NCBI RefSeq assembly: GCF_015732155.1
Contig: NZ_WIQK01000001.1
Span: 406,501-470,500 of the forward strand
Length of the DNA stretch: 64,000 nucleotides
Reading direction: 5' to 3'
From: Pectinatus sottacetonis
GTDB taxonomy: Bacteria; Bacillota; Negativicutes; Selenomonadales; Selenomonadaceae
Under the pieces are notes generated by a model. That model saw only the letters and a program-made list of their open reading frames with translations, was not told where the DNA came from and made no database searches. Position numbers and translations under genes: made by a program. This document shows, piece by piece, positions 40,133-52,856 of the stretch. How positions within the stretch are numbered: the first letter of the stretch is position 1; the number at the start of each line of letters is the position of its first letter.

Positions 40133-40299
40133 CTTGAAAACGGGTAGGTTGTGGAGATAGGATTGTTAAGATGTGATGGCAAGTTGACGGAATGATTGTA
40201 AATTGATTTTTCACTAGAGTATATGTGTGGTTTGAAGAAAAATAGGCTATTCATCATAGATAAAATGAAATTGATGTTGATTAGCCACAAGGAGTGAAA

Positions 40300-41223
40300 A
40301 TGGAAAAGAAAGTAAACTATATTCCGGCTGTACGTTCTAGAATTGAAAAGAAGGTTGGAATATATTGCAGGGTTAGTACAAATGACATGCAACAATTGAA
40401 TAGTCTTACTGCTCAGATTTCCGGACTTACTAGGCTTGTGGCTACAGTGGATACTTGGAGATTAGTTGATGTCTATATTGATATTGCATCCAGTAAGTCC
40501 AAATCTCTAAGAAAAGATTTTGCTCGTATGGTTGAAGATAGCAAGCAAAAGAAAATTAATATAGTGATAACCAAAAGTCTTAGTCGGTTTGGCAGGGATA
40601 CTGTTGATACACTCGAGGCTTTGAAGATACTAGGAGAATCCGATGTTCGTGTTATTTTTGAACAAGAAAATCTGGATTCCGCTGAAACCGACAACCAGCT
40701 GATGATTTCCATCGTGGAGGCACTGGCACAAGCAGAAAATGAAAGCAGAAGTGAAAATATAAAATGGGGTATTAAGAAGAAGGTAGAGCAAGGTACTTCA
40801 AAATTAGCAGATAGAAAATGTTATGGATATGATAACGATGAGAGCGGAAAATTGATTGTTAATGGTGAACAGGCATCTGTTGTTCAGAAGATTTTTAATT
40901 TTTATTTGGGTGGCAAAAGTATAAATGGTATCTTGAAAGAGCTGGAGAGCCTAGGAATCAAATCGCCAACTGGAAAAGATAAGTGGAGTAAGCGAACAGT
41001 TGAGGAAACGCTAATCAGAAGAAAGTATATCGGAGAAGCAGAACTTTTGAAATCTGATGAACAAGGTACATATTATTTGGTCAGCGACAATAACCCGGCA
41101 ATCATCTCTAAGGAAGTTTTTAATGCTGTACAAAAAAGAAAAATTCAAAGAAGTAACATTACTGTTGATGAAGACGGAACGAAGCACTGCAGTTCCAATA
41201 AGTATAGTTCCAAGACAAAGTAA
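40300..41223 (+). CDS. Serine recombinase, C-terminally truncated
   Basis: A 307-residue site-specific recombinase. The catalytic domain has the nucleophile S26 in YCRVSTNDM and arginines in SLSRFGRDT; the recombinase domain (about 165-265) has CYGYDNDESGKL and GKSINGILKELESLGI. Large serine recombinases normally go on with a zinc ribbon and coiled coil, to roughly 450-550 residues. Here the protein stops at KYSSKTK just where the zinc ribbon would begin, and no remnant continues in any frame. It is therefore probably unable to excise by itself. The start ATG follows AAGGAG. Confidence 0.85.
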   Translation: MEKKVNYIPAVRSRIEKKVGIYCRVSTNDMQQLNSLTAQISGLTRLVATVDTWRLVDVYIDIASSKSKSLRKDFARMVEDSKQKKINIVITKSLSRFGRDTVDTLEALKILGESDVRVIFEQENLDSAETDNQLMISIVEALAQAENESRSENIKWGIKKKVEQGTSKLADRKCYGYDNDESGKLIVNGEQASVVQKIFNFYLGGKSINGILKELESLGIKSPTGKDKWSKRTVEETLIRRKYIGEAELLKSDEQGTYYLVSDNNPAIISKEVFNAVQKRKIQRSNITVDEDGTKHCSSNKYSSKTK

Positions 41224-42009: not shown

Positions 42010-42849
42010 ATGTCGTATTCAAAATCAATAAATATATTCTTGCCTACAGGAGCATCTGATGGGCCTATAGAGCTTGAAATGCTTAATTGGAACGGAATGA
42101 TAATCAAGATTCCAAGAAAAGAAATAAGTACATATTCAGATGTTGAATTAGATAAGCCAGGAATTTACTTCTTGTTTTGTAAAGATGACGGAGACGGCGA
42201 ATCAGTATACGTTGGAGAGGCAGAAAATCTGCTTTTAAGACTTAAACAACATATTCAGAGTAATAATGCAGGCAAGGAGAAATTCTTCTGGAATAACGCT
42301 GTCTGCGTTTCGGGAAAGGATTTAAATAAAGCACTCATCAAGTACTTAGAGAATTATTACTGTCAACAGGTTAAATCATCTAGTAAATATGAATTGTTGA
42401 CTCGAAAGTCATCACCCAATATGACACTTAAGAGAGCAGAACAGGCTGCAATGGATGAATTCACAGATAATGTTGACATGTTGATGGGTACGATTGGATA
42501 CAATATTTTAGAAAAAAGTAAGGAAAATGAATCAGCTTCACAAACATATTTTTATTGTGGGTCAAAGACAGGCGCTGATGCTAAGGGATATGTTTCAGAA
42601 AATGGTTTTACTGTTTGTGTTGGTAGCAAAATAGCAAGTAAATGTTCATCAAAAACATTTATGAATAAATATGCTAAAATTCTAGACAAGTTAGTTGAAA
42701 ACAAGATTATTGTTGATTTTATTTTTGAAAAAGATTACACTTTTGGATCACCGACTGCAGCAGCAGATGTTGTTTTGCAGAGCTATGTATCAGGTATGGA
42801 GTATTGGATTGATGCATCAGGAAAGAAATTAAAAGAGTATAATATCTAA
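42010..42849 (+). CDS. GIY-YIG nuclease-family protein with DUF4357
   Basis: A 279-residue protein. The GIY-YIG core has GIYFLF at 51-56, YVGEA at 67-71 and an arginine in LLLRLKQH, about right for catalysis; FLENYYCQQ-like helices follow (KYLENYYCQQ). The C-terminal part (about 190-275) matches the DUF4357 pattern (KGYVSENGFTVCVGSKIA). Such proteins are often found with restriction and other defence genes and may cut DNA. It faces the hsd operon and is separated from it by a terminator. Whether it is part of that system is unknown. Confidence 0.8.
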   Translation: MSYSKSINIFLPTGASDGPIELEMLNWNGMIIKIPRKEISTYSDVELDKPGIYFLFCKDDGDGESVYVGEAENLLLRLKQHIQSNNAGKEKFFWNNAVCVSGKDLNKALIKYLENYYCQQVKSSSKYELLTRKSSPNMTLKRAEQAAMDEFTDNVDMLMGTIGYNILEKSKENESASQTYFYCGSKTGADAKGYVSENGFTVCVGSKIASKCSSKTFMNKYAKILDKLVENKIIVDFIFEKDYTFGSPTAAADVVLQSYVSGMEYWIDASGKKLKEYNI

Positions 42850-43055: not shown

Positions 43056-46000
43056 TCATTGTGTAAATTTATTTGAGTTACCTACTCCAAAATATTTTTC
43101 GAAGAAAGCTTTTAACTTATCAATTACTGTTTGCTTTTTCTTTGCACGATTTCCGCCACCAAAACGGCTTATGGGCGGCATGATTTTATCAATGTCTGTA
43201 CCTAATGTTTTTACTTCACCTTGTTTGAATGATTTCTCTAAAAAAACTCGAGTTTCATCTGACTTTAATCTTTCATTTTTGATGAGTTCTTTAAGGTCCT
43301 TCTCGCGCTGCTCGGCAACGAAATTATTCCATTCAATTATAACATCATCTACGTCATTGATTCCGGCAATAAAGGTTTCAATTAATTGCTTTTTACTGCG
43401 GAGTTCTGGGCTGGCATCAATGGCTTTTTTTATCGTGATCATAACTTCTTTGTCTTCACCGTGTGTATCATGATATTTTTTCACCAGCATGAGAATGTAA
43501 TCTATGTTGATTTCAATTTGTTTAATGAGTTCAACTTCAAATACGATATCATCAATAATATCAGTGCTCTCACCATTTTCGCGTTTCCGTTTCCATTCGT
43601 CCCTTAAGTCTTGATATCTACCTAAGTAATCTTGTAAATCTCTTTCTGAAATGATTTCTTTACCGGCAAATTCATCAAAGGATACTAGTAAATTTCGCAT
43701 ACGTAATATTGCGCTAAACAAAGCAATAAAGTCTTTTTGCTTTTTCTCACCGGTAATCTGTGATTCGGATATCGGAAACTTATTTGAAAGATCTTTAATT
43801 AAATCTACATAACCAGGTACATGTTTATTTTCTGATATATACCCTTTATAGTAATCTTTAAAACTGTGAAGAAGAGCAATACCTCCTGCATCCTCGTCGC
43901 CAAATAAAGAGATGGCACTATCAACACGTTTTTGCAGGTTACGGAAGCACACAATATTACCAAATGTCTTGATGTTGTTGAGAATACGATTAGTTCGGCT
44001 AAAGGCTTGAATGAGTCCGTGCATTTTAAGATTCTTATCTACCCAAAGTGTATTCAAGGTGGTTGCATCAAAACCAGTCAGGAACATATTTACCACAATT
44101 AGGAGGTCAAGTTCCTTATTTTTCATACGAAGTGATACGTCTTTATAATAATTTTGGAATTTATCAGAAGATGTATCATAAGTCGTATTGAACATTTTGT
44201 TATAGTCATCTATAGCTTTTTCCAAAAAATCACGTGAATTTTTATCTAATGCAGAAGTATCCTCAGGATTTTCTTCGTCAAGAATGCCATCAGTCTCTTC
44301 TTCATTTTGTGCATAGCTATAAATTACAGCTATCTTTAGTTTTTTAGTTGGGTCTGCGTTCATCTGTTTGCGAAACTCGTCATAGTACAATTTTGCCATA
44401 GAAACAGAAGCGACCGCAAAAATGGAGTTAAATCCGCTAACACGTTGTTTTTGTTTTATCTCCTCAATGGCACCTCTCTTTGCGGAAGCGACATCGGAAA
44501 TATTTGTTAGTTGATTAAAAATATAGGATCTATCTCCTCGGTAGGTCTTCTGATCAAAGTGTTCCAAAATATAACGAGTAACAAGAGAAATACGCTTTGG
44601 TGCCATAAATGCGTTTTCACGATTAATATCCCATACTTGCTCATCATCGATATCATGGTCTGAGTCGATTGTTTTAATATAATCTACACGGAACGGCAAA
44701 ACATTTTTATCGTTAATTGCATTAACAATAGTATATGTGTGGAGCTGGTCGCCAAAGGTCTGTTCTGTAGTTAATAATAGACCACTTCTACTTGAACCCG
44801 AATTCGTAGAAAAGATTGGTGTTCCAGTAAAACCAAACATATAATATTTTTGGAAAGCGCCTTTTTTCTTTTTTCCATCTTTATCAACACCACCTGCAAT
44901 GGCGATGTGCATATCACCAAATTGGCTACGGTGACACTCATCGAAGATAATAACAACTTGTTTATTATAAACCGGGTGTTCTTTATTTTTCTTAATAAAA
45001 GTTGATAGTTTTTGAATGGTTGTAATAATGATACGGGACTTTTTATCACCCAGTTGTTTTGTAAGAATAGCCGTTGATGTGTTGCTGTTGGCAGCTCCTT
45101 TTTCAAAACGGTCATATTCTTTCATTGTTTGATAGTCTAAATCCTTACGGTCAACTACAAACAGTACCTTATCTATGTATGGCAACTGAGAGGCAAGTCT
45201 GGCAGTCTTAAATGACGTTAGAGTTTTACCAGAGCCTGTTGTATGCCAAATATATCCGCCTGCGGCAATATTTCCGTATTTTTTATAGTTATGAGCAATG
45301 TCAATTCGGTTAAGAATTCGCTCTGTCGCAGTAATCTGATATGGGCGCATAACCATCAGCATATTTTCTGCAGTGAAAACACAGTACTTTGTTAAAATAT
45401 TTAAAAGGGAGTGCTTTGCAAAAAATGTCTTTGTAAAGTCAATTAAGTCAGAGATGACGTGATTTTTTGCATCAGCCCAAAAAGATGTAAATTCAAAGCT
45501 ATTACTTGTTTTACCTTTTTTTGACTTACCTGAGGATGTATCCTTAATAGCATTGAAACGTGTACTATTTGAGTAATACTTGGTGTTCGTTCCATTGGAG
45601 ATAACAAAGAGTTGCACATATTCAAAAAGGCCACAACCCGCCCAAAAGGAATCACGCTGATAGCGATTTATCTGATTAAAGGCCTCTCGAATAGCAACAC
45701 CTCTACGCTTTAGCTCAATATGAACCAAAGGTAGTCCATTTACAAGAATGGTCACGTCATAACGATTATCATATTTTGCACCCTGTTCTTTGCCATTAAC
45801 ATACTGATTGATAACCTGAAGACGGTTGTTGTGTATGTTTGTCTTATCAATTAATTTGATATTTTTTGAAAGCGCATCGTCACGCTTAAGTACCTGAACA
45901 TAGTCTTCTTGTATTTTGCGAGTTTTATCTGCAATATCATCATTTTTGTTATCAATGCAGTCAGCAAAAAATCTTTCCCATTCGGTATCGGAAAAATGAT

Positions 46001-46217
46001 AACTGTTGAGTTCTTCCAGTTTGGTTCGAAGATTTGCAATCAAATCTGCTTCCGTGTGAATAGGAAGATACTCATAGCCTTGTTCACAAAGCAGACGTAT
46101 AAACTCTTGTTCTAGTGCGGCCTCGCTTTGATAACTATCAGAACGATTTTTAACTGGTTCATATTCCGTAACAACGGTATTTTCGTTCGTTTCTGCTACA
46201 ATATTAAAATATGGCAT
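43056..46217 (-). CDS. hsdR: Type I restriction enzyme, R subunit
   Basis: A 1053-residue motor and nuclease subunit. The N-terminal PD-(D/E)xK nuclease has D154 and E168-x-K170 (HIELKRRG). The helicase part has Walker A TGSGKT at 327-332, DECH at 426-429 and later motifs such as FLTGFDATTLNTLW and AFSRTNRI. The C-terminal region (about 860-1040) is the helical part that binds the methylase. It translocates and cuts unmodified DNA with HsdM and HsdS. Intact and full length. It starts after AAGGAGGTG and is the last gene of the operon. Confidence 0.96.
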   Translation of the reverse strand: MPYFNIVAETNENTVVTEYEPVKNRSDSYQSEAALEQEFIRLLCEQGYEYLPIHTEADLIANLRTKLEELNSYHFSDTEWERFFADCIDNKNDDIADKTRKIQEDYVQVLKRDDALSKNIKLIDKTNIHNNRLQVINQYVNGKEQGAKYDNRYDVTILVNGLPLVHIELKRRGVAIREAFNQINRYQRDSFWAGCGLFEYVQLFVISNGTNTKYYSNSTRFNAIKDTSSGKSKKGKTSNSFEFTSFWADAKNHVISDLIDFTKTFFAKHSLLNILTKYCVFTAENMLMVMRPYQITATERILNRIDIAHNYKKYGNIAAGGYIWHTTGSGKTLTSFKTARLASQLPYIDKVLFVVDRKDLDYQTMKEYDRFEKGAANSNTSTAILTKQLGDKKSRIIITTIQKLSTFIKKNKEHPVYNKQVVIIFDECHRSQFGDMHIAIAGGVDKDGKKKKGAFQKYYMFGFTGTPIFSTNSGSSRSGLLLTTEQTFGDQLHTYTIVNAINDKNVLPFRVDYIKTIDSDHDIDDEQVWDINRENAFMAPKRISLVTRYILEHFDQKTYRGDRSYIFNQLTNISDVASAKRGAIEEIKQKQRVSGFNSIFAVASVSMAKLYYDEFRKQMNADPTKKLKIAVIYSYAQNEEETDGILDEENPEDTSALDKNSRDFLEKAIDDYNKMFNTTYDTSSDKFQNYYKDVSLRMKNKELDLLIVVNMFLTGFDATTLNTLWVDKNLKMHGLIQAFSRTNRILNNIKTFGNIVCFRNLQKRVDSAISLFGDEDAGGIALLHSFKDYYKGYISENKHVPGYVDLIKDLSNKFPISESQITGEKKQKDFIALFSAILRMRNLLVSFDEFAGKEIISERDLQDYLGRYQDLRDEWKRKRENGESTDIIDDIVFEVELIKQIEINIDYILMLVKKYHDTHGEDKEVMITIKKAIDASPELRSKKQLIETFIAGINDVDDVIIEWNNFVAEQREKDLKELIKNERLKSDETRVFLEKSFKQGEVKTLGTDIDKIMPPISRFGGGNRAKKKQTVIDKLKAFFEKYFGVGNSNKFTQ

Positions 46218-46229
46218 ATGTTCACCTCC

Positions 46230-47486
46230 TTAGGATAATTCTTTAAATGTCAAAAGTTTATCTCGATAATATTCATACTGCTTTTTACGTGCATAGATTT
46301 CAGCAGGTAGACCTGTAGAAATATCGTTGCATAGAGTATCAAAGCGATCGAGAATATCAACAATATGTTGTTGTTCTTCGATTGATGGTACTGGAATTTT
46401 TAATTTTCGCATTGCCTTCATTGAAACACTTTTAACTGTACCACCTGCCGCTTTAGCCAGATAGTTTGACCTAATATCATTAGATTGTAATAAGTGCATT
46501 AAAAATCGAGGTAGTAGTTTATTTTGGTTTGGTTTTATTGCATAAACACCCTCTTTAATGTTCCAATTTGTAGGGGGAGCACTTAATACAGCAGTTTCAC
46601 CAATTGTTCCAGTTCCGGAAAAGAGCACATCTCCAACTTCAAGATTTGATCGGTTATTGCATAATTTTAATGCCACGTTATTAATACGATCAGTTTTATC
46701 AGAAAATACAATAGTATTATTCTGTATTTCCCGTATTGTAACGTAATAGTTAAGTGCATCATCGGTGTTTAATCTAAAAAATTGTCGTGGATTTAGTCCT
46801 GTGGTGAGAGAAATAATTAATTCTTCTAATGTTTTCCATTCCACCTCATCCCCAAAAGTAAGCAACTCATCCCTATAATACTCATACTGTTTTTTTCTTG
46901 CTGTAAGCTCCGCTGTAAGCTCCGCTGTAAGCTCCGTGAAATTGTCCAATATACGTACAATTTCCTCCTGCACGGGTAAAGGGGGGAGGGGAATAACAAT
47001 CTTCGCCATTAATTTCTTTGACACGTTAAATCTTGTTACTCCGTTAGCAGTTTTACTAATTTGGTATCTGAGGTTGCTTGAACGAAAAAGGTGTTTTGCA
47101 AAATCTGGTTCAATTATGCTAAGGTTGTTAAAGCGAAAGAAAAAACAAAAGCTGTTAAGATAAAGTGGCTTCTCTGGCTTTTTAGTAACTACGGATGAAA
47201 ATCCACATTCATTCGGTGTTTCTGAGGAACCAGTAAATATGACATCTCCATATTTAAGAGTTCGTTGATTTTCTCGTTCTGCAATTTTTACGGTGTCATT
47301 AGGAGCGATATTCAAGGCAGGGTTAGAATACACATTTTTGTATGTAATAAATGTAGCATTTCCATTTGTAAAATCATCTTTAGATTTTCCTGTAAGCCCG
47401 CCAAAAAAATGACCAAGTGCTTCAAGTGGTTTGTAGGTTACTCCCTCTGGACATAACTCCGTAATTAATTCTTCTAACTTACTCAT
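46230..47486 (-). CDS. hsdS: Type I restriction enzyme, specificity subunit (type IC-like spacer)
   Basis: A 418-residue specificity subunit with two target-recognition domains (about 15-170 and 215-370), each followed by a conserved helix ending in ARKKQYEYYRD. The central helix contains TELTAELTAELTARKK (184-199), built from a 12-bp repeat in three DNA copies. In EcoR124-type systems a change of one copy alters the spacing between half-sites. It overlaps hsdM by four bases (ATGA). The recognised sequence cannot be predicted by reading. Confidence 0.93.
   Translation of the reverse strand: MSKLEELITELCPEGVTYKPLEALGHFFGGLTGKSKDDFTNGNATFITYKNVYSNPALNIAPNDTVKIAERENQRTLKYGDVIFTGSSETPNECGFSSVVTKKPEKPLYLNSFCFFFRFNNLSIIEPDFAKHLFRSSNLRYQISKTANGVTRFNVSKKLMAKIVIPLPPLPVQEEIVRILDNFTELTAELTAELTARKKQYEYYRDELLTFGDEVEWKTLEELIISLTTGLNPRQFFRLNTDDALNYYVTIREIQNNTIVFSDKTDRINNVALKLCNNRSNLEVGDVLFSGTGTIGETAVLSAPPTNWNIKEGVYAIKPNQNKLLPRFLMHLLQSNDIRSNYLAKAAGGTVKSVSMKAMRKLKIPVPSIEEQQHIVDILDRFDTLCNDISTGLPAEIYARKKQYEYYRDKLLTFKELS
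46900..46935 (-). repeat. 12-bp tandem repeat in hsdS, three copies
   Basis: GCTGTAAGCTCC (plus strand) is repeated exactly three times. On the coding strand it reads GGAGCTTACAGC, giving the TAEL units between the two recognition domains. Length is a multiple of three, so copy-number change keeps the frame. Confidence 0.95.
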
Positions 47487-49051
47487 TTGCTCACCTCAAT
47501 TTCTTCAATGATGGTGCTAATGGCTTTACGAAGTTCATCTTCATGCTTAACAATTTTTTCTATTTTAGCATTTAAAACTTTTATATCAATTTTTTCTCTT
47601 GTGTCTTCTGCTTCTACATAAGTAGAAACTGAAAGAGTATAATCGTGTTCAACTATTTCGTCATAGCTTGCAATGTGGGAAAAACACTCTATTTCTTCAC
47701 GGTTTGCAAATGTATCAACAATTTTATTTATATTTTTTGGTTCTAATTTATTATTGTTTGTGACCTTAACGCATTCATTACTTGCATCAATAAAAAGAGT
47801 TTTGTTGTCATTTTTATTTTTTTTCATTACCATAATACAAGTGGCAATGGAAGTGCCGAAAAATAGATTGCTAGGTAGCTGAATGATACAGTCAATGTAA
47901 TTGTTATCAATTAAATATTTACGGATTTTCTTTTCAGCGCCACCACGGTACATAATGCCGGGAAAACATACAATGGCAGCAGTACCATTAGACGCAAGCC
48001 AAGATAGGCTATGTAAAACAAATGCAAGGTCAGCTTTGCTCTTTGGCGCCAGAACTCCTGCAGGAGAAAAACGAGGGTCATTTATAAGTAGAGGGTTCTC
48101 GTCACCGGCCCATTTGATAGAGTATGGAGGATTTGAAACAATTAGTTCAAATGGTTCATCATCCCAATGTTGTGGGTTTGTCAGTGTGTCTTCACACTCC
48201 ACATCAAATTTATCAAAGCCAATATCATGAAGAAACATATTGATACGACAAAGGTTGTAAGTGGTAATATTAATCTCTTGACCATAGAACCCTGTAGTAA
48301 TGGCATCCTTACCGAGAATTTTTACAGCTTTTAACAAAAGTGAGCCAGAGCCACAAGCAGGGTCATATACCTTGTTAATAGTTTTCTTACCAACTGTGCC
48401 AAGGCGTGTGAGTAGTTCAGAAACATCGGCAGGAGTAAAAAACTCACCACCTGACTTGCCTGCATTGGATGCATACATGGTCATCAAATATTCGTAAGCG
48501 TCACCAAAAGCGTCAATATCGTGGTCCTTAACAGAACCAAGGTTCATTGCGGAAATACCATTTAAAAGCTTAGCTAGTCTTTCGTTCCTCTTGGCAACTG
48601 TGCTACCAAGCTTGTTGCTGTTGACATCAAAGTCATCAAAAAGGCCAGTAAAACTGTTTTCAGAGGCTCCACCTTTTGCTGAGTTTTCAATGTTACGAAA
48701 CACATTTTCTAATGTTTCATTTAGGTTCTCATCTATCATTGCCCTTGCTCTGACATTACAAAAAAGTTCGCTAGGAAGCATAAAGAAACCTTTTTCCTCG
48801 ACTAAGCCAGCACGAGCTTCTTCAGCTTCTTCGTCGGTTAATTTTGCATAGTTAAAGTCGTTGTTTCCAGCTTTGATTTCACCATCGTTGATATATGCTG
48901 TTAAATTTTCGGAAATATATCTATAGAACATTGTTCCAAGAACATAATTCTTAAAATCCCATCCATCAACAGCACCTCGTAACTCGTCAGCAATTGCCCA
49001 AATAGCACGGTGTAATTCTTCACGTTCTTGTTTTTTCTTGTTTTCAATCAT
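47483..49051 (-). CDS. hsdM: Type I restriction enzyme, methylation subunit
   Basis: A 522-residue adenine-N6 methyltransferase. It has an N-terminal helical domain (HsdM_N, about 1-160), the SAM motif DPACGSGS at about 230-237 and the catalytic NPPY at 307-310. It modifies the site chosen by HsdS and is part of the restriction complex. The start is the ATG at 49051 after GGGAGG, within the last codons of the upstream HTH gene (eight-base overlap); an upstream frame of 34 further codons has no binding site. It overlaps hsdS by four bases. Confidence 0.95.
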   Translation of the reverse strand: MIENKKKQEREELHRAIWAIADELRGAVDGWDFKNYVLGTMFYRYISENLTAYINDGEIKAGNNDFNYAKLTDEEAEEARAGLVEEKGFFMLPSELFCNVRARAMIDENLNETLENVFRNIENSAKGGASENSFTGLFDDFDVNSNKLGSTVAKRNERLAKLLNGISAMNLGSVKDHDIDAFGDAYEYLMTMYASNAGKSGGEFFTPADVSELLTRLGTVGKKTINKVYDPACGSGSLLLKAVKILGKDAITTGFYGQEINITTYNLCRINMFLHDIGFDKFDVECEDTLTNPQHWDDEPFELIVSNPPYSIKWAGDENPLLINDPRFSPAGVLAPKSKADLAFVLHSLSWLASNGTAAIVCFPGIMYRGGAEKKIRKYLIDNNYIDCIIQLPSNLFFGTSIATCIMVMKKNKNDNKTLFIDASNECVKVTNNNKLEPKNINKIVDTFANREEIECFSHIASYDEIVEHDYTLSVSTYVEAEDTREKIDIKVLNAKIEKIVKHEDELRKAISTIIEEIEVSK

Positions 49052-49280
49052 TATTTGTAACCTCCCAATTGTTTTGTTTATCTGCATTTGCACTAGCACC
49101 ACTCTCAATCCAAGAATCAACTTCAGAGGCCCTAAATTTATACAATCTACCAACTTTGTAATATGGTATTGTTTCTTTTTTTATCCAAGTTCTAATTGTG
49201 TCTTTGCTACAGCCCACATGTTTTGAAATCTCATCAAGGCTAAGCCAACGTTCAAGTTCATCTGGTTTATTATTTTTCAT
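49044..49280 (-). CDS. Small helix-turn-helix (excisionase/MerR-type) DNA-binding protein
   Basis: A 78-residue protein of the HTH_17 kind: WLSLDEISKHVGCSKDTIRT and WIKKETIPYYKVGRLYKF make the winged helix, followed by FRASEVDSWIES. Such proteins precede hsdM in several type I operons and may control expression, or may act as an excisionase. It sits 17 bases after the NACHT gene and overlaps hsdM. The start follows AAGGAG. Confidence 0.85.
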   Translation of the reverse strand: MKNNKPDELERWLSLDEISKHVGCSKDTIRTWIKKETIPYYKVGRLYKFRASEVDSWIESGASANADKQNNWEVTNND

Positions 49281-49297
49281 TTTAATAAAACTCCTTC

Positions 49298-51637
49298 CTA
49301 AGAATTAATCACCGTATTTTTCATTAAGTTTTCATAATATTTTTTTACGTCGCAGTAGATTTTGCAAATATCTTTTTCTGGATCCTTCAAGATATTAATT
49401 AAATCACTGTATTTTTCTGGACTTTTCATAACCTTATCAAAGTCAATTGTATATTCATATCCAAAGCAAACTAAATGCATATCATTATCGCGAATAAAAT
49501 TTTCAACATTATGTGTCTTTTGGTATGATTGCAGGTTATCAAATTCATGTTGCAACAATCTACGGGGAAGGATTTTTTCCTTGCCGTCATGTGGGTCAAA
49601 ATAATGTTCTCCAAATATTCCTGCTGTTATAAATTCTTGGTAATCAGGTGCATTTTCAAAGACATTCAAACACAACAAGTTAGAAATCTTTAGATGCCGC
49701 AAAAGAATAGAATAAATAACATTTGCTGGTTCTGAAATAGTATTTTTAGGTGGTACCCATTCTGCATCATTTATTTGGGAGTAATTTGTTACTGTATCAG
49801 AATAAATTAAATGATATGTTATCTCTTTGTATCCGTATTTCAAAAAAGAGATGAGTGAACTATCTTTAGTTTTACCATTAAAAACATTATGTAAGTAGGG
49901 CTTAAGTAAACACCTCTCAAATTTTTCTTCTGAAAACTCTTTTAGCATTTCGAATGCATCAATTCCATCAAACTCAGTTTCAGCAACTCCCCAGAGATTA
50001 TGACCGAGGGTTTCTAGTTCTTCAGGATTGGCAGAATAATAGTACCGAGCAAACAAATACTCCTGAAAGCCAGGGTCAATATATAAAAGTTTTATATCTT
50101 CTTCATACATCATGCAGGCCGTTGCACAAGCATCATGGATGAAATTCTTACTGGTCATAATTTTTGGATTTTCAAGAGTTTCCTTACTAGCCAAATTTTC
50201 AAAATACTCATCGAATGTGTCATGGTCGAATTCTATGGCATGATTTAAGTATGTAGTAGCACAAAATTCTCTAAATACTTTTGTAAATTCCTCGACATCC
50301 TGTGAACTTCTAAATACTCTTGAATAACCTTTCTTTTCTTCATCATGACCATATACAATTGCATCATATACAGTTCTGTAAAAAAGCCTCTTTTTCCCAT
50401 CAAAGCAATCTACTATTGGATATTTCATGATAACGAAAGTTAAGAGCATTGGATTTGAGGCAAAAACCTTATGTTTTTGAAGATAATCACCTTCAATGTA
50501 ATTTGTGATTTCATCCCGGATTGACTCTTCTTCAGTATCATCTAAAAGATTATTAATTAATGAAGAAGCCTGTTCTTTGTTAAATGGACGAAGATACATC
50601 CTAGAAAATCCCTTGACAGCTTTTATTATATCGCATTCTCTTGATGCAATGATATATTGATTGTAGGGGTATCTATCAGCAAGTTCATCTATTTGTCGCT
50701 GAAAGGCATTTACATCCGATGGGTCGATTTCATCGGCACCATCCATTAAAATTTGGCATTTGCCAGAGGACATCAAATTTTCAAGTATTTTGGTAGTTAG
50801 ACTCTTGTCATATATCTCAGCGGTCTTTACAATATAATCTTTAAATAAATCATTGCTTTCGTTAAAGTCACGTAGTTCTAGTATTATAGGTAACAAACCT
50901 GTTTGCATGTGTTTATTAATAGATTCAAGAAATAGATGCTTGAGCATCATAGATTTGCCCATTCCTCCGTTTGCGACAAGGATAACTTTTTTTGAATATT
51001 CCGCTATCAATTCTAGGTTTACATTCTGAATAATTTTTTCTTGAGTCCTACTATGCCTGTTTTTTGTAGCTGTAAGGCGACTACTCAAAATATTACAAAC
51101 ATAAATATCTTCTAATAAACGTTCTTCTCCATCCGAGAAGGGCGTTTTTGTTTTCTCATATTTTATTTTTGTTCTATTTGTATACTCAGGAAAAGAGATT
51201 ATATGCGCTTCTGGCTTGTAATAATCTTTAACTATATTATCAGCATTACCGTTACCTTGAGCAATTGCATAAAACTGTTTAGCTAAAGCAGATGCAAAGA
51301 GCCGTTTGTCTGGATCTTCACCTTCTTGTAGACCAATTTTAAAATCAACCATGATATTACGCAGTACACTGTCGTTTAGGTCTCTTGAAATTTTATCAAC
51401 AAAACCATCTTCATTAAAATTAGATACAACTGTGTTCCAAAGCGTACTTTCAGGGTTGCGATTTCCACTGAACCATTTTCCATAAGTGCTACTAGATAGG
51501 GGTAACAAATCATGGAACTCCTCAAGAAGTGCAGCTTTCATAAAGTATTCCGGTATTTTTTCTTTAGACTTGTGTCCAAGGATGCCACCAGAGCTTCTAC
51601 CCATATAAAATTTTGAGAAAAAATCCGTATATTTCAT
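49298..51637 (-). CDS. NACHT/STAND-type NTPase, candidate defence protein
   Basis: A 779-residue protein. The N-terminal region (about 1-150) has a possible DNA-binding or adaptor motif, SSSTYGKWFSGNRNPES. A NACHT-like NTPase starts near 200 with Walker A in VANGGMGKSMML (221-232), Walker B in QILMDGADEID (295-305) and a sensor ASRECD (331-336). The C-terminal half (about 450-779) is helical and may be the sensor; it has no obvious known repeat. Such proteins in bacteria act against phage. It opens the operon that contains hsdM, hsdS and hsdR. The start follows GAGAGGGG. Confidence 0.75.
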   Translation of the reverse strand: MKYTDFFSKFYMGRSSGGILGHKSKEKIPEYFMKAALLEEFHDLLPLSSSTYGKWFSGNRNPESTLWNTVVSNFNEDGFVDKISRDLNDSVLRNIMVDFKIGLQEGEDPDKRLFASALAKQFYAIAQGNGNADNIVKDYYKPEAHIISFPEYTNRTKIKYEKTKTPFSDGEERLLEDIYVCNILSSRLTATKNRHSRTQEKIIQNVNLELIAEYSKKVILVANGGMGKSMMLKHLFLESINKHMQTGLLPIILELRDFNESNDLFKDYIVKTAEIYDKSLTTKILENLMSSGKCQILMDGADEIDPSDVNAFQRQIDELADRYPYNQYIIASRECDIIKAVKGFSRMYLRPFNKEQASSLINNLLDDTEEESIRDEITNYIEGDYLQKHKVFASNPMLLTFVIMKYPIVDCFDGKKRLFYRTVYDAIVYGHDEEKKGYSRVFRSSQDVEEFTKVFREFCATTYLNHAIEFDHDTFDEYFENLASKETLENPKIMTSKNFIHDACATACMMYEEDIKLLYIDPGFQEYLFARYYYSANPEELETLGHNLWGVAETEFDGIDAFEMLKEFSEEKFERCLLKPYLHNVFNGKTKDSSLISFLKYGYKEITYHLIYSDTVTNYSQINDAEWVPPKNTISEPANVIYSILLRHLKISNLLCLNVFENAPDYQEFITAGIFGEHYFDPHDGKEKILPRRLLQHEFDNLQSYQKTHNVENFIRDNDMHLVCFGYEYTIDFDKVMKSPEKYSDLINILKDPEKDICKIYCDVKKYYENLMKNTVINS

Positions 51638-52307: not shown

Positions 52308-52856
52308 ATGAAGATTCGAGTTTTATATGAAGACAACATCAAAAACGGTCACAAGAGCTACACCACTATTGAAATTCCAGATGGAGATTATAGTGTCATG
52401 CTGGATATCGACTATGAGCAGCGTCTTACAGAGGCAAAGCCTGAAAAGAAAGCGGAAGTAAAGCGCTGTGAAACGGTGCAAGAAATGTTCGACCTGATGA
52501 GCAAAAAGGAATACAACCACTGGCGTAGGTACCATAGACATCTTGGAAATCCAAAGACTCCATATCGCAAGGATGATGAATCAGAAGATAATACGGATGT
52601 CATGGATACATTAGCTGATAATTCTCAGGAAATAGAGCGTAATTATCAGGATGAGTATGAAGATGTATGCCAAAAGATACGTCAAGCACTTGGTAAAAAG
52701 CAGGACTGGGCGGATATGTTTATTGCAGTCCGTATCGATAGCATTCCAATTAGAGAATATGCGACTTCAATAGGTACAGACGAAAACAATATCACACATA
52801 AACTAAAGAGAGCCGAGAAAAAACTTCAAGGTATTTTTAAAAATCGTCAGATTTGA
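52308..52856 (+). CDS. Phage-type sigma-70-like protein
   Basis: A 182-residue protein. The N-terminal half is acidic; the C-terminal part (about 115-180) has a region-4-like helix-turn-helix: WADMFIAVRIDSIPIREYAT, then SIGTDENNITHKLKRAEKKL. This type opens early regions of Clostridia phages and integrative elements and probably drives late genes. The start ATG follows AAAGGA, which lies inside a hairpin of the leader. It is followed by the antirepressor gene. Confidence 0.65.
   Translation: MKIRVLYEDNIKNGHKSYTTIEIPDGDYSVMLDIDYEQRLTEAKPEKKAEVKRCETVQEMFDLMSKKEYNHWRRYHRHLGNPKTPYRKDDESEDNTDVMDTLADNSQEIERNYQDEYEDVCQKIRQALGKKQDWADMFIAVRIDSIPIREYATSIGTDENNITHKLKRAEKKLQGIFKNRQI

What the first reader, a model, noticed from the sequence alone, without database searches (positions are those of the whole stretch)
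43056..51637. NACHT NTPase at the head of a type I restriction-modification operon
Five minus-strand genes run without room for internal promoters: NACHT protein (49298-51637), 17-base gap, HTH (49044-49280), hsdM (overlap 8), hsdS (overlap 4), hsdR (12-base gap). NACHT/STAND proteins and type I systems are each known antiphage modules. One transcript in this order suggests joint action, for example the NACHT protein acting as back-up abortive defence when restriction is blocked, or sensing its failure. The joint function is inference.
Basis: partly seen in the sequence, partly recalled or inferred. Interest (0 to 1): 0.72.

Follow-up and report, generated by a model that had tools for sequence, protein, structure and literature searches.

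The report
NLR-like gene heading restriction operons
A bacterial relative of animal NLR immune sensors is the first gene of a phage-borne restriction operon, and its relatives head several unrelated DNA-modification defences in the same position, which suggests an exchangeable back-up layer for when restriction fails.

Summary
The operon is real and at the stated coordinates: NACHT protein, excisionase-type HTH, hsdM, hsdS, hsdR (gaps 17, -8, -4, 12 bases). The restriction enzyme is of the EcoR124I kind; the NACHT protein is modelled with an NLRC4/NLRP3-like core. It lies beside phage-type genes, divergent from a sigma-like phage gene, in a slot seen in many phage contigs. Of 102 dereplicated NACHT relatives with at least 3 kb downstream, a restriction or BREX core follows in 40 of 63 that carry one of two N-terminal domains (ntA, ntB) and in 1 of 39 without. 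Seven core classes were counted, among them type I, type III, BREX-1 and NgoFVII-like. Closely related type I cores occur with near or distant NACHT alleles, an ABC-3C leader, or no leader. ntA and ntB also occur on non-NACHT leaders (NBR1-type Ig, ABC-3C, HamA). But the slot often holds restriction cores without NACHT (12 of 20), so shared cargo is a strong rival. Most likely an exchangeable second-tier leader, analogous to PrrC-EcoprrI and PARIS; that it senses failed restriction is inference. Nothing was tested in cells.

The parts
49298..51637 (-). NACHT (NLR-related) STAND NTPase, 779 aa, first gene of the operon
   Evidence: Pfam NACHT E 7.3e-7 over cut-off; AF2 model pLDDT 82.9, Foldseek best PDB match NLRC4 4kxf E 5.2e-10; Walker A GGMGKS and Walker B LMDGADEID kept, G225/G227/K228 and D299/D302/E303 invariant in 16 relatives
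51197..51637 (-). ntA domain, residues 1-147, all-helical, unnamed
   Evidence: AF2 model of residues 1-150 pLDDT 91.5; no PDB match at E <= 0.001; profile match to the N-terminal domain of NBR1-Ig leaders, hhalign probability 96.6, E 6.1e-10
50543..50986 (-). NACHT domain, residues 218-365
   Evidence: Pfam PF05729
49319..49924 (-). SNaCT14-like C-terminal region, residues 572-773
   Evidence: 17.9 bits, E 0.0039, under the cut-off of 27 for this protein; 11 of 16 relatives match SNaCT14 at E <= 0.001, best 1.1e-16
49044..49280 (-). HTH_17 excisionase-type DNA-binding protein, 78 aa
   Evidence: HTH_17 E 8.4e-14; TIGR01764 over cut-off and MAD1 under cut-off; follows NACHT in 34 of 134 dereplicated loci
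47483..49051 (-). hsdM, type I methyltransferase, EcoR124-like
   Evidence: TIGR00497 740.8 bits; PDB EcoR124II M protein E 1.6e-184
46230..47486 (-). hsdS, specificity subunit with two Methylase_S stretches
   Evidence: Pfam Methylase_S E 9.4e-37
43056..46217 (-). hsdR, type I restriction subunit, EcoR124-like
   Evidence: TIGR00348 544.1 bits; PDB HsdR 4bec/2w00 (EcoR124) E about 1e-249
52308..52856 (+). sigma-like phage gene divergent from NACHT; marks the slot
   Evidence: PHROG phrog_11138 (unknown function) E 6.7e-30; weak sigma70-ECF E 0.0019 under cut-off; homologous divergent gene beside NACHT in 44 of 134 dereplicated loci

Best explanation
A two-tier defence operon carried as cargo by a phage-type element. 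First tier: an EcoR124-like type I restriction-modification enzyme. Second tier: an NLR-related NACHT protein encoded at the head of the same operon, followed by a small HTH protein that probably regulates the operon. The NACHT gene is an exchangeable leader: relatives with the same kind of N-terminal domain stand in the same place before type III, BREX-1, BREX-3-like, C5-methylase, NgoFVII-like and other modification-based cores, and other leaders (ABC-3C, NBR1-type Ig, HamA fusions) replace it. Shown: gene order, families, recurrence, leader exchange on closely related cores, fit of NACHT clade to core class. Inferred: the NACHT protein stays off while the core is intact and oligomerises to stop the infected cell when a phage blocks or overwhelms restriction, as PrrC does with EcoprrI. 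The trigger and the toxic activity are unknown.
For: NACHT-HTH-hsdM-hsdS-hsdR recurs with NACHT 33-40% identical to the window's while HsdM is 82% identical. Core follows in 40 of 63 relatives with ntA/ntB against 1 of 39 without (Fisher 7e-11); the one exception, L102, has ntB in an adjoining gene. HTH follows in 11 of 12 type I, 7 of 8 type III, 6 of 6 BREX-1, 4 of 5 BREX-3-like and 4 of 7 C5-methylase loci, its open frame within 150 bases of the NACHT stop in 31 of 34. Core class needs 12 changes on the NACHT tree against 26-35 in 300 shuffles. Alternative leaders in the slot include ABC-3C and a gene with DUF4209, which PMC3710099 lists as overlapping a HEPN family found in R-M operons (passages). 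Precedents: PrrC is silenced by linked type Ic EcoprrI and freed by T4 Stp (PMC2610378, passages); PARIS is triggered by the anti-restriction protein Ocr (PMC9122126, passages).
Against: No expression, binding or infection data. 23 of 63 domain-bearing relatives with 3 kb downstream have no recognised core, among them NACHT-HTH without a core (L097) and NACHT alone (L013, L015). Cores are common in the slot without NACHT (12 of 20 slots), and the HTH stands before hsdM without NACHT (L181-L183). HTH is absent from all 10 NgoFVII-like and both Eco57I loci. The loci are related by descent, so the Fisher value and the tree count overstate independence; co-inheritance of whole cassettes would also make NACHT clades fit core classes. 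The tree is a quick one with long branches that meet, L133 among them. PARIS, the nearest analogue in phages, does not need a restriction system in the cell.
Confidence: 0.52

Rival explanations
1. Shared cargo without coupling: the phage slot collects defence genes behind one promoter, restriction cores are its commonest cargo, and NACHT works on its own phage signal. Sharing a transcript is convenience.
For: Restriction or methylase genes in 12 of 20 NACHT-less slots of at least 4.5 kb; NACHT alone in L013, L015 and others; NACHT proteins act singly elsewhere, as bNACHT25 sensing through DnaJ (PMC12169576, passages); PARIS is independent of EcoKI.
Against: Relatives lacking ntA/ntB head a core in 1 of 39. 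NACHT is first, adjacent and co-directional with HTH and core over seven core classes. Outside the detected sigma-like slot, domain-bearing relatives still head a core in 16 of 33, although an undetected, diverged marker gene could explain part of this.
Confidence: 0.33
2. Regulatory leader: the ntA or ntB protein, with the HTH protein, mainly sets expression of the restriction core, for example holding it down during establishment or when the resident element is induced.
For: Leader lies at the promoter-proximal end beside a divergent sigma-like gene; a repressor, RptR, heads a type I island in E. coli (PMC12255303, abstract and passages); ntA is a small helical domain, and the second BFVD match is a 279-aa uncharacterised phage protein (TMq 0.59, E 0.48, so not significant).
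Against: A 779-aa NTPase with intact Walker motifs is much for a repressor; ntB is fused to HamA and ABC-3C parts, which are defence components; no ntA match to a solved DNA-binding fold at E <= 0.001.
Confidence: 0.1
3. Inverted roles: NACHT is the phage sensor and unleashes the linked nuclease as its effector, so the core is the killing arm.
For: No effector domain was recognised in the NACHT protein; clade 14 bNACHT proteins are said to lack readily discernible effectors (PMC12169576, passages).
Against: Relatives without any core exist, and the nucleases of the cores are unrelated, so one interface for all is unlikely.
Confidence: 0.05

Closest known systems
PrrC-EcoprrI (anticodon nuclease linked to a type Ic restriction system)
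   Same: A translation- or cell-stopping module genetically linked to a type I enzyme; the window's enzyme is EcoR124-like. That EcoR124I is type IC is recalled.
   Different: PrrC is an ABC-ATPase/HEPN anticodon nuclease; here the linked gene is a NACHT protein at the head of the operon with an HTH between, and silencing by the enzyme is untested.
PARIS (AriA/AriB)
   Same: Phage-borne defence in a cargo hotspot, proposed second line when restriction is blocked
   Different: OLD-ABC ATPase plus TOPRIM nuclease, not in a restriction operon, works without EcoKI (PMC9122126, passages)
bNACHT clade 14 proteins (SNaCT14)
   Same: Central NACHT, short C-terminal domain, no recognised effector; 11 of 16 close relatives match SNaCT14
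   Different: N-terminal ntA domain; operonic with HTH and restriction genes; the window's own SNaCT14 score is under the cut-off
RptR / DarTG2 type I islands
   Same: Type I operon with an extra defence module and a small DNA-binding regulator
   Different: Regulator is first and the module lies between hsdS and hsdR; protein families differ (PMC12255303, abstract and passages)
ABC-3C systems
   Same: Occupy the same place before HTH and a related type I core (L184) and in the phage slot (L235, L266)
   Different: Three components built on an ABC-type ATPase; no NACHT
MADS (MAD1 HTH)
   Same: HTH protein resembles MAD1 (E 2e-15)
   Different: Score 56.7 under the cut-off of 80; hsdM, hsdS far under the MAD2 and MAD5 cut-offs

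Membership tests
Type I restriction-modification, EcoR124-like | hsdM, hsdS and hsdR intact and adjacent | tested here: met
Type I restriction-modification, EcoR124-like | closest solved relatives are EcoR124 subunits | tested here: met
   HsdM E 1.6e-184, HsdR about 1e-249
Type I restriction-modification, EcoR124-like | methylation and cleavage at a defined site | not testable with these tools
   no methylome data
NACHT / NLR-related STAND NTPase | NACHT domain over the curated cut-off, Walker motifs intact | tested here: met
   29.6 against 26.7 bits; conserved columns
NACHT / NLR-related STAND NTPase | NLR-like fold | tested here: met
   Foldseek NLRC4 E 5.2e-10, probability 1.00; whole-chain TM-scores low (0.30/0.26), so only the core matches
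bNACHT clade 14 | SNaCT14 domain over the cut-off | tested here: not met
   17.9 bits against 27 for the window protein; 11 of 16 relatives match at E <= 0.001
PrrC-type restriction-linked back-up | genetic linkage to a type I system | tested here: met
PrrC-type restriction-linked back-up | ABC-ATPase/HEPN anticodon nuclease | tested here: not met
   only NACHT passes its Pfam cut-off
PrrC-type restriction-linked back-up | silenced by the enzyme, freed by an anti-restriction factor | not testable with these tools
   needs experiment
PARIS | OLD-ABC ATPase with TOPRIM nuclease | tested here: not met
MADS | MAD1, MAD2, MAD5 over their cut-offs | tested here: not met
   56.7/80, 48.2/720, 36.2/400 bits

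The most novel reading that the evidence does not exclude
ntA and ntB are coupling domains that plug different second-tier executors (NACHT, ABC-3C, HamA, Ig-type leaders with HEPN-like partners) onto whatever modification-based core sits downstream, so that many phages carry a standard two-tier defence with interchangeable parts in which the leader monitors the core.
Probability: 0.25. Interest if true: 0.87.

Novelty: new variant of a known kind. Interest (0 to 1): 0.64.

Why it matters
NLR-type proteins in bacteria are mostly studied as single genes. A recurring operon that puts one at the head of many different restriction systems would make a guard or second-line role directly testable, would add a NACHT counterpart to PrrC and PARIS, and would point to two unnamed domains (ntA, ntB) as the common element of the leaders. 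It would also show phages carrying layered immunity as a unit.

Tried and rejected
Considered and set aside. (1) NACHT tied to hsd genes alone: rejected, seven core classes follow it. (2) HTH as part of the NACHT module alone: rejected, it precedes hsdM without NACHT (L181-L183) and with ABC-3C (L184). (3) ntA and ntB as one family: no support, hhalign probability 0.3. (4) A known fold for ntA: no PDB or BFVD match at E <= 0.001. (5) A homologue in solved structures by sequence: P0001 gave one match at E 0.86, profile A4 none. (6) PADLOC and NCBIfam: no model for P0001 at E <= 0.01. (7) MADS membership: not met.

Limits and handling. Dropped before counts: short duplicate loci L001-L008 and L100, then 14 loci sharing over 75% of 5-mers with a kept one (148 to 134). 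Classes were assigned by phmmer at E 1e-6 to seeds from representatives, over six genes downstream; helicase cross-matches may misplace single loci. L058 was set by hand to Eco57I/GmrSD for the tree only. The seeds were scanned with Pfam or PADLOC, except the BREX-1 seeds from L014, which I first named from memory and checked afterwards: BrxX E 5.7e-251, BrxA E 2e-11, BrxC 1234.8 bits, BrxB 143.4 bits. The ~1-in-12 type I locus without a found HTH is L039, whose HsdM is only 25% identical to the window's. The slot table is a hand tally and includes near-duplicates (L228/L230, L235/L236) and contigs already seen as NACHT loci (L203, L207, L232, L234). In one search one row, L196, was wrong (transposase-like); one search repeats the comparison without it. 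DUF2800, DUF2815 and MORC are labels from memory.
Full report
Observation. The five minus-strand genes are present as described. Spacing from NACHT to hsdR is 17, -8, -4 and 12 bases. Pfam and NCBIfam identify a NACHT protein, an HTH_17 excisionase-type protein and complete hsdM, hsdS and hsdR. The enzyme is EcoR124-like: HsdM matches EcoR124II M at E 1.6e-184 and HsdR matches EcoR124 HsdR at about 1e-249. No terminator-like site lies at a junction on the coding strand, and promoter-like sites are no more frequent than in shuffles, so a single transcript is likely but unproven.

Setting. Right of the operon lie, on the plus strand, a sigma-like gene (phrog_11138), an antirepressor, a primase-helicase, an HNH gene, a helicase, a ParB/methyltransferase gene and an amidoligase gene; left lies a serine-integrase-like ORF matching positions 72-363 of a 651-position PHROG profile. 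None of the 20 proteins scanned with PHROGs was named capsid, portal or terminase, so I call it a phage-type element, not a proven intact prophage. Close relatives were found in IMG/VR contigs: L009 (74%) and L010 (67%), both NACHT-HTH-hsdM, both beside a divergent sigma-like gene.

The NACHT protein. It is rare: 5 of 189 genomes of the family and 8 of 380 of the class sample match at E <= 0.001, one of the 8 at only 9e-4. Of those 8, three are followed by HTH and a core (the window, G135 with type I, G252 with BREX-1). The model has pLDDT 82.9 and its best PDB matches are NLRC4, NLRP3 and NOD2, with low whole-chain TM-scores. SNaCT14 is under its cut-off in the window protein but found in 11 of 16 relatives. 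PMC12169576 (passages) says that clade 14 proteins carry SNaCT domains and lack readily discernible effectors. I found no effector domain here either.

Recurrence. With earlier loci and after removal of duplicates 134 remained. Downstream, on the same strand, 50 head a recognised core: type I 12, NgoFVII-like 10, type III 8, C5-methylase/HATPase 7, BREX-1 6, BREX-3-like 5, Eco57I/GmrSD 2; 84 head none or end too soon. Representatives were identified by Pfam and PADLOC and BREX-1 by BrxX, BrxA, BrxB and BrxC matches. A further locus, L251, has NACHT-HTH and a DpnII gene.

N-terminal domains. Two unrelated domains precede NACHT: ntA (the window's, about 150 aa) and ntB (about 290 aa). With at least 3 kb downstream, a core follows in 9 of 12 ntA, 31 of 51 ntB and 1 of 39 others; the one exception has ntB in an adjoining gene. 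These loci are kin, so the Fisher value of 7e-11 is a description, not a probability. ntA also forms the N-terminus of leaders with an NBR1-type Ig domain (L193, L209, L224, L256; hhalign 96.6, E 6.1e-10; controls 0.3-0.4), some of which stand before HTH and other type I genes. ntB is fused to ABC-3C CTD11 (L226), to HamA (L249) and, weakly by ntB score, to CTD6 (L184). In the class sample ntB occurs in 16 of 380 genomes and ntA in 2 of 380, the latter both NACHT before type I. Many ntB genes there are without NACHT and stand before genes of about 215 and 780 aa that I could not name.

Leader exchange. Type I cores whose HsdM is 71-89% identical to the window's carry near NACHT alleles (L025, L009, L026: 62-75%), distant ones (L099 40%; L011, L017 33%), a NACHT with ntB instead of ntA (L133, HsdM 82%, HsdR 86%), an ABC-3C leader (L184) or no such leader (L181-L183). 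On a tree of 82 NACHT cores, 47 with a known core class, the class needs 12 changes; 300 shuffles need 26 to 35. Matched descent of leader and core, or whole-cassette transfer, would both give this. The tree is a quick one with long branches, including L133.

Controls against the reading. The HTH is not a NACHT marker: 24 places in 21 of 380 genomes match it; of 20 regions fetched, none of which held a NACHT relative, several have HTH directly before hsdM. In 25 phage contigs with at least 4.5 kb beyond the sigma-like gene, I read the leader as NACHT in 5, NBR1-Ig in 3, ABC-3C in 3, ntB with HamA or an unknown part in 2, other in 2 and none in 10; 12 of the 20 without NACHT hold restriction or methylase genes, four of these in the opposite orientation. 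Thus the slot attracts restriction genes anyway.

Mechanism. Best supported is an exchangeable second-tier leader joined to a modification-based core. The logic is that of PrrC, which is silenced by linked EcoprrI and released by T4 Stp (PMC2610378 and PMC3710099, passages), and of PARIS, which responds to Ocr (PMC9122126, passages). T7 Ocr inhibits BREX as well as type I enzymes (PMC7261183, abstract in a listing only), so a single cue could serve several of the cores, but not obviously the type II-like ones. Shown here: anatomy, recurrence, exchange. Inferred: one transcript, silencing, trigger, cell arrest. The main rival, shared cargo, stays at one third.

Literature. PMC12839542 (section 35 part 1 and passages) reviews back-up nucleases in BREX and has no occurrence of the word NACHT. 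PMC10853773 (passages) mentions STAND/NACHT fusions to Orc/CDC6 proteins beside DndH-like systems. In the open library, searches pairing NACHT with type I restriction, HTH and phage defence, with BREX, type III restriction and prophage, with hsdM, and with STAND NTPase and methylase listed no paper whose title or abstract describes this operon; most subscription papers are not held, and the bNACHT paper I sought is not.

Noticed in passing
window 42010-42849 (+): GIY-YIG/DUF4357 gene convergent with hsdR matches PADLOC candidate defence family PDC-S14 (E 1.2e-80).
   Followed up: no
window 40294-41223 (+): Serine-integrase-like ORF of 309 aa covers only positions 72-363 of a 651-position integrase profile; it may be shortened.
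   Followed up: no
L288, L289, L290, L291, L293, L187, L191: A repeated cassette: ntB gene, a gene of about 215 aa and one of about 760-800 aa, with the HTH between the last two in L187 and L191; one of the large proteins has no match among solved structures.
   Followed up: partly
L249:2607-4109 (-): ntB domain fused to HamA, the nuclease of Hachiman.
   Followed up: partly
L209:2536-5548 (-): ntA-Ig leader followed by a DUF4209 gene, a family overlapping HEPN C6orf70 according to PMC3710099.
   Followed up: partly
L201:17845-19609 (+), outside the window: Exonuclease and Gp2.5-like annealing genes (phrog_69, phrog_112) about 16 kb beyond the window; perhaps a second phage element or the same one.
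   Followed up: no
L243, L248, L254, L259: The slot holds a type I system in the opposite orientation with a gene of 637 aa beside the sigma-like gene.
   Followed up: no
L024, L037: NACHT loci in records titled Parabacteroides (MAG) although relatives are Clostridia; binning error is likely.
   Followed up: no
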